Below, piece by piece: positions 28,968 through 33,071 of a stretch of DNA of 64,000 nucleotides (position 1 is the stretch's first letter; every line of letters starts with the position of its first letter). Origin of the DNA: an uncultured Pelagibacteraceae bacterium (lineage in GTDB: Bacteria; Pseudomonadota; Alphaproteobacteria; Pelagibacterales; Pelagibacteraceae); assembly GCA_902569975.1 (NCBI GenBank), contig CACFWD010000005.1, positions 1 through 64,000 on the forward strand, written 5' to 3'. The position numbers and the translations under genes are program-made. Under the pieces are notes generated by a model. It was not told where the DNA came from. It did not search any database and saw nothing but the letters and a program-made list of their open reading frames with translations.

Positions 28968-29945
28968 TTATGAAATTACAAGAAGATTCAAAATTTTACG
29001 AATAAATTTAGCTTTGAACTTAAAAACTTCTGTCTGATAAGGTAATATTTTTTTAAAATTTAAACTAGATAATACATACTGCTTTTTATTATTTACTCTA
29101 ATCAAATCTTCTTTAATTAAATATTTACATTTTCTGATAATTGTAGCTCTAGGAATTTGAGTCATTTCAGAAATTGACATAGCGCTTATTCCTGTCTCAT
29201 TACCTACATTATCTATAATTATGCCACTAGTCGTGAAGTGATCTAAAGGAAATTCATTAGAGTTTTGTTCTAAATGTTTTGAAATATTCAAAACTTGATT
29301 CATACAAATCGTTCCCCAAATATGAAACGTAGTTAAATCTTGCATAAACTTATTGTAACCAATTACAAGTGGTATTTGCATTCTATAAAACCATCGCCAA
29401 CATAATGTAAAATTTTTTTTAATTATACTTTCAACCATGTTGGGTGTAATTTTTTTTAAATAAACTTTATCTTTATTTAATCCTTTCGAAACAAGATGAA
29501 TATATTTCGCTGATAATTTAATTTGATTTTTAGGCTTAACAAACGAAAAAGCTTTACGGTCAATTACTATTTTTCGACTATCACGATTAATCACTCCTTC
29601 TCTTTGAAGCTCTAAAACTTTTCTTCTAACGGTTTCTTTAGGCAAATTTAGTTTTATGCAAAGTTCCGAAATACTAAATTTTTCAATTTGTAAATATGAT
29701 TTAGAATAATATTCCTCATAAGAATATGAAATATTCATTTGGTCATAAAATTGAAAAGTTTTTTCAATCAAAGAAATCACAATCATATATTTATGATGAT
29801 CATTAAATGCCCAGTAAACACTATTCATCCAATTCCATTGATGTGAAATCCATTCCTTGCTTAAATTTGAATAATGAGACATTATACTTTCATAAACTTG
29901 ATCATCTGAAAGAGTTTTTGAAAAATCTATTTCTTGAATGTTCAT
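28968..29945 (-). CDS. regulatory protein with two winged-helix domains
   Basis: A 325-residue protein with two separate winged helix-turn-helix units: residues 91-120 (SISELCIKLNLPKETVRRKV) and 255-282 (SISEMTQIPRATIIRKCKYL), both with the ETVRR/ATIIRK recognition-helix pattern. The N-terminal 85 residues and the centre are rich in aromatic residues (EWISHQWNWMNSVYWAF) and look like a helical bundle. I recognise no named family. It is probably a DNA-binding regulator, divergent from two small membrane proteins at 30056-30533 that it could control. Confidence 0.65.
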   Translation of the reverse strand: MNIQEIDFSKTLSDDQVYESIMSHYSNLSKEWISHQWNWMNSVYWAFNDHHKYMIVISLIEKTFQFYDQMNISYSYEEYYSKSYLQIEKFSISELCIKLNLPKETVRRKVLELQREGVINRDSRKIVIDRKAFSFVKPKNQIKLSAKYIHLVSKGLNKDKVYLKKITPNMVESIIKKNFTLCWRWFYRMQIPLVIGYNKFMQDLTTFHIWGTICMNQVLNISKHLEQNSNEFPLDHFTTSGIIIDNVGNETGISAMSISEMTQIPRATIIRKCKYLIKEDLIRVNNKKQYVLSSLNFKKILPYQTEVFKFKAKFIRKILNLLVIS

Positions 29946-30055: not shown

Positions 30056-30286
30056 GTGAATAGAAAAGGCTTAGAAGCAAATTTGTATTTAGAGGAGACC
30101 CCAAATCCTGTAGAAGAAGCTAATAAGCCTTTAAAAACCGAAAAATTAGAGAATAAAAGGGTTGATATTAACGTTCTCAAGGCAAGAGCTAAAGCCATTC
30201 AAGACAAACAAAATATTAAAAACACAATTTCTATAATTTTTATTTTAGTGTCTCTTGGAGCCGTAGGAATTTATTTTTCAATATAA
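30056..30286 (+). CDS. small membrane protein with C-terminal helix, paralogue A
   Basis: A 76-residue protein starting at GTG 30056; no ATG gives this frame. The N-terminal 50 residues are charged and hydrophilic, ending in VDINVLKARAKAIQDKQNIK, and a single hydrophobic segment (about residues 58-75) forms the C-terminus, as in tail-anchored proteins. It shares the layout and the INVL-x-R-x-K motif with the next protein at 30327, so the two are paralogues. Function unknown. Confidence 0.6.
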   Translation: MNRKGLEANLYLEETPNPVEEANKPLKTEKLENKRVDINVLKARAKAIQDKQNIKNTISIIFILVSLGAVGIYFSI

Positions 30287-30326: not shown

Positions 30327-30533
30327 ATGAAAAATACTTTATCGTCAATTAAAAAACATCTTATTCACAAATATACTATTGAAGACGATAATACATATGC
30401 GAAAAAATCTACAAATATAAATGTATTGTTAAACAGAGTTAAATTAGATCAAAAAAGAGAAAGTCGAAAAAAACTATTGTTTACAGCCGCAACGTCAGTT
30501 GGGGTACTTTTATTTGGTGTTTTAATTTTTTAA
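30327..30533 (+). CDS. small membrane protein with C-terminal helix, paralogue B
   Basis: A 68-residue protein: charged N-terminal 45 residues ending TNINVLLNRVKLDQKRESRKK, then a single C-terminal hydrophobic helix (about residues 50-68). It shares the NINVL-x-x-R-x-K block and the tail-anchor layout with the 76-residue protein 40 nt upstream. The pair was probably produced by duplication. No known family. It precedes the decayed tRNA-Met region. Confidence 0.6.
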   Translation: MKNTLSSIKKHLIHKYTIEDDNTYAKKSTNINVLLNRVKLDQKRESRKKLLFTAATSVGVLLFGVLIF

Positions 30534-30585
30534 AAATTATCAATTAAGTTTTTTAAATATTAAGAAAAAAATTATCAAAATTTTA

Positions 30586-30660
30586 TGTTAGCGGGAAGTT
30601 GGATTGAACCACTTACCTCGAGCTTATGAGTCTATCGCCATGAACCCTGCTCACCTAATC
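30586..30660 (-). pseudogene. decayed tRNA-Met copy
   Basis: About 48 bases from 30586 match the 3' two-thirds of the intact tRNA-Met at 31700-31776 in the same orientation, with only about six differences, nearly all toward A or T. The anticodon CAT region is preserved, but the 5' D-arm and acceptor half have drifted beyond folding. It is therefore a non-functional copy, either a decayed tandem duplicate or the far attachment repeat of an integrated element. Confidence 0.75.
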
Positions 30661-30698
30661 TAGAAAAATTACTCCTGTAAATGCTCTCTTTCCTTTCT

Positions 30699-30747
30699 AA
30701 TGATATTGAATCAAATTAAAGAATCTTAATCAAAAACCAATATCATT
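30699..30747. repeat. 10-bp perfect inverted repeat
   Basis: AATGATATTG at 30699-30708 is matched by CAATATCATT at 30738-30747 with a 29-nt spacer. It lies between the tRNA remnant and the oxygenase gene. It could form a transcript hairpin or mark an old recombination site; nothing else identifies its role. Confidence 0.5.
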
Positions 30748-30835
30748 GACGTGTATATACTGGAGAGATTAGAGTGATTGGACTCTCTAATTAAGATTTG
30801 TTTATATTAAATTCGTATTAGTTTTTTTTAATTTG

Positions 30836-31651
30836 CTATTTCAACAAACGTTTTACTACTTTAATAAATATGGGAGGTATAATTTCCTTTATAATCGATT
30901 TAAAAGTAACACTATCTTTAAATGATTCACCTTTACGTTCTTTAAAAAGCGTTGAATGCTGTTTATTAGAAATTTCATTTTGTGGTCTACCAGTAGAAAA
31001 ATAATAGTAAGCTAATGACTTTCTGGAGCGGTTTTCTGGGCAAGTTAATGTATCTGGATGCCCATGATAAGTGTAGGAAGTTGTTGTAAATATCACAGCA
31101 GTGTTAAATCTTGGATAAATAGTTTGTATTGCTTTCTCCATATTTTTATCGAACAATTGCAAAGCGCCGCCCCATTCATCTTTCCAATTCTCATTTAGAT
31201 AAATTAATAGGTTTAACCGTCTATCAAGATTAAGTTGTGGGTGCTTGTTAAAGTCTGCATGAACTTTAAGGAAGCCTCCAGTCTTTATTTCATGATAACC
31301 ACCACCACTTAAATAAGGATCAGAAATAAGTGGCTCTTCTATACTTGTAAGATCTTTAAGCCAATTCATCATAAGGTCAGACTGGAGGTAAGTGTTTAGC
31401 TCAAGTGCAGCTGGACTTAGAACTTGCATTCCCTTCCCAGCAAGTTTTATTTCCCTACTATTATTATATTTATGAATAACTGTGTCTTTGAACTTTGACA
31501 GATCAGGAAATTCTAATAAAACTCTTTTAAGTAAATCCTCTTTTATGAAATTTTCTATTACAATATGTGGAAATGGTGCAGCATGGCTATATATTGACGC
31601 CAAGGACTTTGCATCAATCCACTGCTCATTGATTACATCGTTTAATTCCAT
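30836..31651 (-). CDS. 2OG-Fe(II) oxygenase, prolyl-hydroxylase-like
   Basis: A 271-residue dioxygenase. I start at the ATG at 31651 (MELNDVINEQWIDAKS), preceded by AGGGAG and AAGAAG, because a longer reading runs into the tRNA gene. Iron ligands H131 and D133 in LKVHADFN and H196 or H198 in YTYHGHPD, and the 2-oxoglutarate Arg in SRKSLAYYYF, are present. Such enzymes hydroxylate proteins, lipids or small molecules. Its base use is less homopolymer-rich than the adjacent sugar genes, and it lies exactly between tRNA-Met and its decayed copy, so acquisition by integration is likely. Confidence 0.8.
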   Translation of the reverse strand: MELNDVINEQWIDAKSLASIYSHAAPFPHIVIENFIKEDLLKRVLLEFPDLSKFKDTVIHKYNNSREIKLAGKGMQVLSPAALELNTYLQSDLMMNWLKDLTSIEEPLISDPYLSGGGYHEIKTGGFLKVHADFNKHPQLNLDRRLNLLIYLNENWKDEWGGALQLFDKNMEKAIQTIYPRFNTAVIFTTTSYTYHGHPDTLTCPENRSRKSLAYYYFSTGRPQNEISNKQHSTLFKERKGESFKDSVTFKSIIKEIIPPIFIKVVKRLLK

Positions 31652-31699
31652 AACTTCTTTCTCCCTTCCGATATGGAATCTTTCAAAATCCCAGTCGAA

Positions 31700-31776
31700 T
31701 GGTAGCGGGAAGTGGGATCGAACCACTGACCTCGGGCTTATGAGTCCCGCGCTCTAACCAACTGAGCTACCCCGCC
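31700..31776 (-). tRNA. tRNA-Met (CAT), elongator type
   Basis: A 77-nt cloverleaf on the minus strand: acceptor GGCGGGG with TCCCGCT, D-arm GCTC...GAGC, anticodon loop CTCATAA, T-arm AGTGG TTCGATC CCACT and an encoded CCA. The sequence resembles the elongator tRNA-Met (GG start, GTTGGTTAGAGC D-arm) and not initiator tRNA. The anticodon stem ends in an A-G mismatch, which is tolerated. Ile-CAU tRNA is a less likely alternative. Confidence 0.93.
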
Positions 31777-31880
31777 ATTAAATTCACGTTGATATATACT
31801 ACTAATTTTTTTTCTTTCAAACAAGAATTTGTAAAATAATCATTATGTTAGTACATATGATATAATGTAATTTATATCTA

Positions 31881-33071
31881 ATGAAAAAAACTTTTTTAAA
31901 ATTAGGCAAACAGCCTTTAGCTAATTCTTTTTTGTCCAATCTTACAAAAAAACTATTAAGACAAGAGTTTTTTTATAATTTAAATGTTTCCTTTAATTCA
32001 AAAAACTTTTTAGTTTCTGTAAGCAATCCCGTAAATCCAAAATTACAATACACTGATAATTATGCGCATAGAGCATCAGAGTCTGCCACTATGAGAAATG
32101 CATTTAAACAAACGGCTAGAAAACTCAAAAAAAGATTTAATCCAAAAATTATTTTAGAAATTGGAAGTAATGATGGAGTTTTCATTAAAAATTTTAATAG
32201 GAAAAAAGTCATTGCAGTAGAACCTTGTAAAAACTTAGCTAATTTAACTAAAATTAGATACAAAACTTTTCCAAATTTTTGGGATAAAAAACTTGCATAT
32301 AAAATTTTTAAAAAGTCCAAAAAAGCTGATCTAATTTTTTCAGCAAATACAATTTCACATATTCCAAATTTAAATGAAACATTTCAAGCAATAAATTATA
32401 GCTTAAGTGAAAAAGGAGTCCTAGTTATCGAAGATCCATCATTATTTTCTGTGATTAAAAATAATTCATATGATCAATTTTATGATGAACATGTTTATGT
32501 TTTTTCTACACTATCAATATCTAAGGTTGTAGAAGAATTTGATTTAAGATTATTTCATGCAGAACATATTCAGACTCATGGAGGTTCAATGAGATATTAT
32601 ATTTGTAAAAAGGACGCGATATACAGAAAGTCAAAAAAATTAATATCAATTTTAAAATCTGAAAGAAATAATAAGTTACATAAATATATTACTTTTAAGA
32701 AATTTTCAATTAGAGTACAGAAATCAAAAAAAGCACTTAAAAAAATTTTTAAAAAATTAAAAAATAAAGGTAATAAAATTATTAGTTATGGTGCAACTTA
32801 TAAATCAACAACTGTTTTTAATTATTGTAATATAGATTCAAAATTAATTGATTATGTTACTGATACCACTTTAAATAAGCAGGGAAGATTTACGCCAGGA
32901 ATGCATATCCCAATAATTTCACCTGAAAAAGGTATGAACGAGTCGGTAAATTATGCTTTCTTAGGTGCTTGGAATTTTAAAAAAGAAATATTTCGTAAAG
33001 AAAAAATATTATTAAATAAAGGATTAAGATTTATCTCTCACGTGCCATGGCCTCAGATAATCGGCAAATAA
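31881..33071 (+). CDS. sugar C-methyltransferase (TylC3/KijD1-like)
   Basis: A 396-residue SAM-dependent methyltransferase that C-methylates 3 of a 4-keto-2,6-dideoxy sugar in related pathways. LGKQPLANSFL opens the protein; the SAM motif EIGSNDG is at 93-99; H160 and Y201-x-E203-H204 reproduce the spacing of the catalytic residues I recall for KijD1/TcaB9. The C-terminal domain has YGATYKSTTVFNYC and KQGRFTPGMHIPI. The usual N-terminal Cys-rich zinc module is absent. It overlaps the 2,3-dehydratase gene by one base (TAATG). Confidence 0.82.
   Translation: MKKTFLKLGKQPLANSFLSNLTKKLLRQEFFYNLNVSFNSKNFLVSVSNPVNPKLQYTDNYAHRASESATMRNAFKQTARKLKKRFNPKIILEIGSNDGVFIKNFNRKKVIAVEPCKNLANLTKIRYKTFPNFWDKKLAYKIFKKSKKADLIFSANTISHIPNLNETFQAINYSLSEKGVLVIEDPSLFSVIKNNSYDQFYDEHVYVFSTLSISKVVEEFDLRLFHAEHIQTHGGSMRYYICKKDAIYRKSKKLISILKSERNNKLHKYITFKKFSIRVQKSKKALKKIFKKLKNKGNKIISYGATYKSTTVFNYCNIDSKLIDYVTDTTLNKQGRFTPGMHIPIISPEKGMNESVNYAFLGAWNFKKEIFRKEKILLNKGLRFISHVPWPQIIGK

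What the first reader, a model, noticed from the sequence alone, without database searches (positions are those of the whole stretch)
30586..31776. A single cargo gene flanked by tRNA-Met and a decayed tRNA-Met copy
Seen: an intact tRNA-Met at 31700-31776 and a same-orientation copy at 30586-30660 with about six substitutions over 48 bases, enclosing a 2OG-Fe(II) oxygenase gene and a 10-bp inverted repeat. Known: integrases often target tRNA genes and leave a partial repeat at the far end. Inference: this is a relic of an integration event that also marks the edge of the variable sugar island.
Basis: partly seen in the sequence, partly recalled or inferred. Interest (0 to 1): 0.65.

Follow-up and report, generated by a model that had tools for sequence, protein, structure and literature searches.

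The report
Decayed gene cassette at SAR11 tRNA-Met
Next to a tRNA gene in a marine SAR11-type bacterium lies the worn-out remnant of a small mobile gene cassette; better-preserved relatives in other ocean bacteria sit at the same tRNA gene, sometimes in rows, carrying different genes between similar ends but, as far as was seen, no working enzyme to move themselves.

Summary
The second tRNA-Met stretch is real (43/48 identical, nt 31-77, same orientation), but similarity stops at 30632; 30633-30760 is a separate conserved element end. That end plus the tRNA 3' half recurs (147-173 bp, 81-91%) in 8 other genomes of 300 congeners searched, downstream of intact tRNA-Met in all 8, with six cargo sets, none the oxygenase. 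An exact-junction scan of GTDB genomes found 18 stretches. Of 218 congeners with this tRNA end, 18 carry at least two copies, against 1 of 135 for a control tRNA-Arg. Related cassettes start TTCTAGA after the tRNA, usually carry a repeat pair spaced 11 bp, occur in tandem, and have empty sites in other genomes (15 of 28 flanks). Near-identical cassettes (95-99%) occur in genomes whose rpoB regions are 79-84% alike. 25 of 26 segments hold no detectable integrase; one holds a broken start. Integrase-bearing elements and a probable prophage use the same tRNA. The window copy looks dead: left end gone, tRNA copy decayed, tRNA-cassette block inverted relative to its flanks (the only one of 27 comparable loci). 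Best reading: a relic of an integrase-less cassette family, CIME-like. Mobilisation in trans is inferred, not shown.

The parts
31700..31776 (-). intact tRNA-Met(CAT), the attachment gene
   Evidence: ARAGORN; Rfam RF00005 62.6 bits
31777..31836 (-). stretch upstream of the tRNA (promoter-bearing by inference), matched in part at 75-94% in many congeners
   Evidence: blastn
31652..31699 (-). place where other cassettes carry their left end (TTCTAGA, repeat pair from +22/23); here absent, TTCGAC... runs straight into the oxygenase
30836..31651 (-). cargo: 2OG-Fe(II) oxygenase (271 aa plus stop)
   Evidence: Pfam PF13640 1.8e-19; start codon chosen by inference (ATG with GGGAGAAAG upstream)
30633..30760 (-). 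conserved right end (family alpha), 128 bp, 83-95% identical in other members (partial pieces included); its arm-like repeats are worn
30586..30632 (-). decayed copy of tRNA-Met nt 31-77 (89-90% identical), the far attachment site
30558..30585 (.). left breakpoint of the inverted block (the relatives' tRNA 5'-flank homology ends at about 30558)
   Evidence: match ends; orientation; inference
31837..31880 (.). right breakpoint of the inverted block, between the tRNA upstream stretch and the methyltransferase gene
   Evidence: inference
28968..29945 (-). host flank gene (HTH_Crp_2 just under its cut-off), normally on the 5' side of tRNA-Met
30056..30286 (+). small ORF S1, conserved host flank
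30327..30533 (+). small ORF S2, conserved host flank that normally precedes tRNA-Met
31881..33071 (+). C-methyltransferase (PF08484) at the edge of the sugar island; in G173 and G207 a homologue lies about 0.75 kb downstream of tRNA-Met

Best explanation
The locus is a dead member (family alpha) of a family of small integrase-less gene cassettes that insert at the 3' end of tRNA-Met in Pelagibacter. A cassette is [left end, usually with a repeat pair] - one to several genes - [right end], and after insertion an intact tRNA stands at one border and a 3'-half copy (from nt 24-31 to nt 77) at the other; several cassettes can stand in a row. Shown here: recurring ends, target copies, empty sites for other members, arrays, different cargo between the same ends, cassette identity far above core-gene identity, no integrase detected inside. 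Inferred: the cassette brings the tRNA 3' half and so rebuilds the tRNA on insertion; the repeats are arm sites of tyrosine integrases supplied in trans by phages or integrase-bearing elements that use the same tRNA. In the window the left end is lost, the copy has decayed and the block is inverted, so it should no longer move.
For: 147-173 bp of end plus tRNA half at 81-91% in 8 other congeners of 300 genomes searched; 18 exact junctions in GTDB genomes; at least four end families and tandem arrays, some mixed (G149, G141, G214; L155, L159); all 6 strong matches of the beta end, in 5 of 250 genomes, sit at a tRNA-Met copy; TTCTAGA start in 21 of 24 cassette loci and one mismatch in 2 more, the window being the exception, against 1 of 60 loci without a detected 3' copy; repeat runs of 6+ nt at spacing 10-12 in 16 of 24 against 6 of 60 and 39 of 1200 shuffles; empty sites for 15 of 28 flanks; LysE cassettes 95.3-98.8% alike with rpoB regions 79.2-80.5%, ArsP cassette 97.1% with 83.9%; 18/218 against 1/135 for tRNA-Arg (Fisher p 0.0013); integrases in two 5'-type elements and a probable prophage at the same tRNA.
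Against: No integrase was shown to act on these ends and no circular form was sought in reads. No exact match to the end motifs was found in viral contigs, nor a confirmed relative of the G226 integrase. 13 of 28 flanks, the window's among them, found no empty site. At the right ends the repeat test is weak: 8 of 21 against 97 of 1050 shuffles, two of the 8 being unrelated runs. One shared-cassette pair (G340/G345) has rpoB regions already 95.4% alike. The window copy lacks the left end, so its membership rests on the right end and tRNA copy. Homologous recombination between flanking repeats could also move cassettes.
Confidence: 0.82

Rival explanations
1. Remnant of a larger integrase-bearing element (phage, island or tycheposon-like) that lost its integrase and most of its cargo, keeping one gene.
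For: Integrase-bearing elements and a probable prophage use this tRNA; G286 keeps a broken integrase start.
Against: The same compact ends surround different genes in many genomes with no integrase trace (25 of 26 segments; no integrase in the whole held stretch of 16 of 17 loci with 3' copies); repeated independent loss would have to stop at the same borders.
Confidence: 0.1
2. tRNA pseudogene made by local duplication or gene conversion, with no mobile element involved.
For: The window copy is decayed and near the parent gene.
Against: The copy is joined to the same conserved end in many genomes, with changing cargo and, for other members, empty sites.
Confidence: 0.02
3. Cassettes are exchanged mainly by homologous recombination across tRNA-Met and its copies; the ends are passive.
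For: Copies of about 47-54 nt flank the cassettes; SAR11 is known for recombination (recalled).
Against: Left ends carry a repeat pair at a fixed place (+22/23, spacing 11) that recombination would not need. Cassette identity does not continue into the 3' flank: 79.1-89.2% in four of the eight pairs compared and no alignable flank in three; but 95.3% in the G340/G345 pair.
Confidence: 0.15
4. The inverted tRNA-cassette block is an assembly or binning artefact of an incomplete genome, while the cassette relic itself is real.
For: Only 1 of 27 comparable loci is inverted, and it is this 62%-complete genome.
Against: No long inverted repeat joins the two breakpoints.
Confidence: 0.4

Closest known systems
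cis-mobilizable elements (CIMEs) and the ssrA genomic islands of Dehalococcoides (PMC3146451, passages seen)
   Same: tandem islands bounded by direct repeats of a stable RNA gene's 3' end; 15 of them without an integration module, proposed by the authors as possible CIMEs moved with neighbours
   Different: there a serine recombinase and ssrA with a 20-bp repeat; here segments of 0.7-5.6 kb, tRNA-Met, tyrosine integrases in elements at the same site, and recurring end families, several with repeat pairs
islands of Ca. Methylopumilus: additive fGI-2 with repeats of the last 20 nt of tRNA-Lys, and a tycheposon starting at tRNA-Met(cat) (PMC10872708, passages seen)
   Same: recurring tRNA 3'-end repeats with pieces of 330 bp-42 kb, mostly unknown genes; tRNA-Met also used there
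   Different: another bacterial group; no conserved end families or empty-site comparison in the passages I saw
tycheposons of Prochlorococcus (known here only through PMC10872708 passages and recall)
   Same: tRNA-bordered cargo elements of streamlined ocean bacteria
   Different: described as 4-200 kbp with a tyrosine recombinase; the cassette segments here are mostly smaller and show none
integrons
   Same: works loosely alike: rows of small gene cassettes added at one site
   Different: the site is a tRNA gene and no integrase was found in the held stretch of 16 of 17 loci with 3' copies, the other having a broken start; Wilhelm 2007 reported no attC at SAR11 variable regions (PMC2217521, passages seen)
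integrase-bearing elements and phage satellites at tRNA genes
   Same: same attachment gene; G226 and G261 elements carry an integrase, G226 also an AAA protein
   Different: no integrase in the cassettes; no replication gene among the ten alpha cargo proteins scanned

Membership tests
element integrated at a tRNA gene by site-specific recombination | intact tRNA at one end and a partial same-orientation tRNA copy at the other | tested here: met
element integrated at a tRNA gene by site-specific recombination | unoccupied site in relatives | tested here: met
   15 of 28 cassette flanks; not found for the window itself
element integrated at a tRNA gene by site-specific recombination | integrase in the element | tested here: not met
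   none in 25 of 26 3'-type segments, a broken start in G286
cis-mobilizable element (CIME) | flanked by att-like sites, no integrase | tested here: met
   for the family; in the window the left-end repeats are lost
cis-mobilizable element (CIME) | no transfer genes | tested here: inconclusive
   only ten alpha cargo proteins and the oxygenase were scanned with Pfam, none a transfer protein
cis-mobilizable element (CIME) | mobilised by accretion with a neighbouring element | tested here: inconclusive
   probable prophage directly beside a cassette in G344, tandem arrays; movement not shown
tycheposon | tRNA border | tested here: met
tycheposon | tyrosine recombinase, 4-200 kbp (as given in PMC10872708) | tested here: not met
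   segments with the tRNA are 0.7-5.6 kb, the window's 1.2 kb
integron | integron integrase beside the array | tested here: not met
   profile of ten tyrosine integrases over the held stretch of 17 loci with 3' copies: only the broken start in G286; some stretches are short on one side (1.2 kb at least), and no integron-specific model was used
integron | attC hairpin sites | not tested
   no attC model was run

The most novel reading that the evidence does not exclude
SAR11 has an integron-like gene-capture platform at tRNA-Met: several families of integrase-less cassettes with their own paired arm sites enter one tRNA gene in tandem, driven in trans by whichever phage or plasmid-like element supplies an integrase of matching arm specificity, so that the most abundant ocean bacteria trade single genes without paying for the moving machinery.
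Probability: 0.4. Interest if true: 0.82.

Novelty: new variant of a known kind. Interest (0 to 1): 0.66.

Why it matters
How streamlined SAR11 cells, which carry few visible mobile elements (recalled), swap single genes is an old question: Wilhelm 2007 reported that no attC sites were found at the SAR11 variable regions (PMC2217521, passages). A cassette family with defined ends, target, empty sites and candidate integrases makes it testable. By titles and abstract starts, none of the papers listed is about such cassettes in SAR11; the lists were capped (10 of 143 and 12 of 353), and most subscription journals are outside that library.

Tried and rejected
Lone tRNA pseudogene: rejected, the copy recurs with the same end. 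Rfam family for the end: no match; the sub-threshold rows all lie at the intact tRNA and its surroundings, none in the end. Integrase beside tRNA-Met in the first relatives: none near among the places listed; most congeners there show one chromosomal match of about 310-325 aa, some none or two. End motifs in viral contigs: 0 in five exact scans; integrase relatives there: seven stretches matched a peptide pattern, none confirmed. Promoter in or near the end: consensus scan no better than shuffles (8 found, mean 6.6). Oxygenase as shared cargo: not supported. Second tRNA-Met of G002 beside the same methyltransferase gene: a different tRNA, apparently the relocated-cluster arrangement of PMC11898729 (my inference), so not the parent of the copy.

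Rows dropped and limits: one search uses 77 of 81 loci (four lack an intact copy of this tRNA). One search uses 24 cassette loci: 17 plus 7 of the 18; six of the 18 duplicate loci already held and five (L147, L149, L152, L157, L158) have no intact tRNA in the stretch held. Its 60 comparison loci include six with a 5' copy and G012, whose 3' copy is too decayed to be detected. Shuffles there keep base content only. In one search L150 was left out (flank too short); L157 came near the criterion and was not counted. The fetched loci were partly chosen for having two matches, so only searches give fair rates, and score two candidates per genome. In one search the G327/G012 cassette comparison failed (empty segment); only their 92% protein identity is used; three pairs had no rpoB value; rpoB of G344 is interrupted by stops.

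Full report
Observation. The window has tRNA-Met(CAT) at 31700-31776, minus strand. A 48-nt direct repeat, 43/48 identical, lies at 30585-30632; it corresponds to tRNA nt 31-77 in the same orientation. Between them is one gene, a 2OG-Fe(II) oxygenase (PF13640). The window's genome is an 863-kb, 62%-complete assembly; that it is Pelagibacter is my inference from the named records that share its cassette end.

The copy is an end, not a lone decayed gene. Searching 300 congeners with 30586-30760 gave matches of 147-173 of the 175 bp at 81-91% identity in 8 genomes besides the window's. In all 8 it lies downstream of the intact tRNA-Met in the same orientation, starting about 0.65-3.5 kb from the tRNA start, with six cargo sets among the eight (G161/G275 share one, G012/G327 another). 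An exact 25-mer across the junction was found in 18 stretches of GTDB genomes: 15 have isolate names of the AG type (single-cell genomes of a known survey, as I recall, although four of those records are titled MAG), one is SCGC AAA795-P11, one a Candidatus Pelagibacter MAG and one a MAG titled only Proteobacteria. An alignment of 12 members shows the end and the tRNA part conserved, with G012 and the window the most worn in the tRNA part.

Families and arrays. In the fetched loci, 3' copies of tRNA-Met are preceded by at least four kinds of end, which I call alpha (window), beta, gamma and delta; within a family the copy starts at nearly the same tRNA position (31; 24-25; 25-28; 27). Cassettes stand in tandem: G149 beta+beta, G141 delta+beta, G214 delta+alpha, L155 delta-like then alpha, L159 alpha followed by a new left end. 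The beta end was found in 18 of 250 congeners; its 6 strong matches (E below 1e-40, 5 genomes) all end at a tRNA-Met copy, and the weaker ones are partial, some beside tRNA-Met and some not.

Left ends and paired repeats. Directly after the tRNA's CCA, 21 of 24 cassette loci begin TTCTAGA and two differ by one base; the window is the exception. Among 60 loci without a detected 3' copy, 1 has such a start. At +22 or +23 most cassettes have a repeated stretch spaced by 11 bp (TGCTCCA, TGCGTC or TGACACA types). A run of 6 or more at spacing 10-12 occurs in 16 of 24 cassette loci, 6 of 60 others (AT-rich runs) and 39 of 1200 base-content shuffles. At the right ends the same test is weak: 8 of 21 against 97 of 1050 shuffles, and only six of the 8, gamma and delta ends, are the expected repeats; alpha right ends are often hybrids of two repeat types and beta ones are imperfect. 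I read the pairs as integrase arm sites; that is inference from their layout.

Insertion and mobility. For 15 of 28 cassette flanks, the host sequence after the last copy matches another genome in which it starts within 25 nt of the intact tRNA: the empty site. 13 did not, the window among them. The LysE cassettes of G184, G341 and G342 are 95.3-98.8% identical pairwise over 854-1350 bp, with rpoB regions 79.2-80.5% alike; the ArsP cassette of G275 and G344 is 97.1% (1594 bp) against 83.9%. The sigma-factor cassette pair (99.0% against 95.4%) is weak evidence, and three pairs had no rpoB comparison.

Rate and control. With the 47-nt tRNA end and up to two mismatches, 218 of 300 congeners match and 18 have at least two copies. 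For tRNA-Arg(TCG), 135 of 300 match and 1 has two, on two contigs; Fisher p = 0.0013. One control tRNA was tested. One of the 18, G122, is a one-contig genome with an integrase near its copies and is not a simple cassette. The decayed copies of the window and G012 are below this threshold; by eye, G126 holds a decayed beta-type relic.

Cargo. Of ten alpha cargo proteins scanned, nine have Pfam matches: ArsP permease, LysE, flavodoxin-fold reductase, pirin, dienelactone-hydrolase-like, ECF sigma factor, GcvT-like, tautomerase, and a glyoxalase match just under its cut-off; the G327/G012 protein has none and is called a methyltransferase only from weak likeness to a window ORF. Labels such as ArsR are mine. 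Beta, gamma and delta cargo was not scanned; it includes many small proteins, several with an MKKLLGIVVLGLL-like signal peptide. The oxygenase has homologues in 24 of 250 congeners counting the window's own; the best other is 51% identical; in 16 of the 23 others it lies on another contig than tRNA-Met, in 7 the place of that tRNA is unknown to me.

Who moves them. A profile of ten integrases found nothing in 25 of 26 3'-type segments and a broken start in G286. Over the whole held stretches of 77 loci it found only G226, G261 and that broken start. The window's own genome, as far as held, has no PF00589 match. The same tRNA is used by 5'-type elements, which leave nt 1-56 to 1-63 upstream of an intact tRNA with its own upstream stretch: G037, G008, G231, G226, G261, G117. 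Two of these six, G226 and G261, carry an integrase next to the 5' copy, and G226 an AAA protein. In G344 about 33 kb lies between intact tRNA-Met and an nt 33-77 copy; at the tRNA side is a 425-aa integrase, at the other side three of four ORFs tested match phage protein families of unknown function, and an alpha cassette follows directly. I read this as a prophage but saw only its two ends. G231 and G222 show beta-like repeats on the 5' side. So integrases with the right target exist; that they act on the cassettes is inferred.

The window copy. It has the right end and a tRNA copy with five differences, but no left end. In 26 of 27 loci with the S2 or HTH flank genes near tRNA-Met, these lie on its 5' side; the window is the one exception. 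Its methyltransferase gene lies on the 5' side of the tRNA, while in G173 and G207 a homologue lies about 0.75 kb downstream of it. The simplest reading is an inversion of the block from about 30558-30585 to 31837-31880. No long inverted repeat links the ends. It may be a real rearrangement or an assembly fault; I cannot tell.

Relation to known things. Dehalococcoides ssrA islands include 15 without integration modules, which their authors suggest may be cis-mobilizable elements (PMC3146451, passages). Methylopumilus has tRNA-Lys-end repeats with 330 bp-42 kb pieces, and tycheposons are described there as 4-200 kbp, with a tyrosine recombinase and tRNA-Met at the border (PMC10872708, passages). 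Wilhelm 2007 reports no attC sites at SAR11 variable regions and tRNA genes flanking HVR4 (PMC2217521, passages). PMC11898729 (passages) describes a relocated sugar cluster near tRNA-Val and tRNA-Met, which fits the second tRNA-Met of G002. PMC7318151 and PMC12416821 (passages) do not describe such cassettes in what I saw; the latter mentions tyrosine recombinases and tRNA genes beside a transferred phn operon in Pelagibacterales. I saw passages, not whole texts. I file the family as a new variant of the cis-mobilizable kind and the window copy as its relic.

Noticed in passing
L122, L123, L127, L039, L040, L131 (G231, G226, G261, G037, G008, G117): Elements on the 5' side of tRNA-Met leave a 5' partial tRNA and seem to supply a new upstream stretch and 5' half to the working tRNA, the mirror image of usual tRNA integration.
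   Followed up: partly
L036 (G002 contig 1), 4468-8176: A homologous GFO-hexose dehydratase-methyltransferase set lies between tRNA-Val(GAC) and a second, different tRNA-Met, as in the relocated cluster described in PMC11898729.
   Followed up: partly
G261:C3, G176:C5, G006:C8: Homologues of the oxygenase lie about 2 kb from the chromosomal 310-325 aa tyrosine recombinase in three genomes, perhaps another variable spot.
   Followed up: no
L116, L115, L113, L041, L122: Several cassette proteins start with almost the same signal peptide (MKKLLGIVVLGLL...) although the rest differs.
   Followed up: no
L198 (G122:C1:9012-12209): One-contig genome with two opposite-facing tRNA-Met 3' copies about 3 kb apart next to an integrase; another copy of the tRNA end lies at the far end of the record.
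   Followed up: partly
L233 (G222), just upstream of tRNA-Met: Beta-like repeats directly before the tRNA upstream stretch, perhaps an older 5'-type insertion; a 5' copy was not looked for.
   Followed up: no
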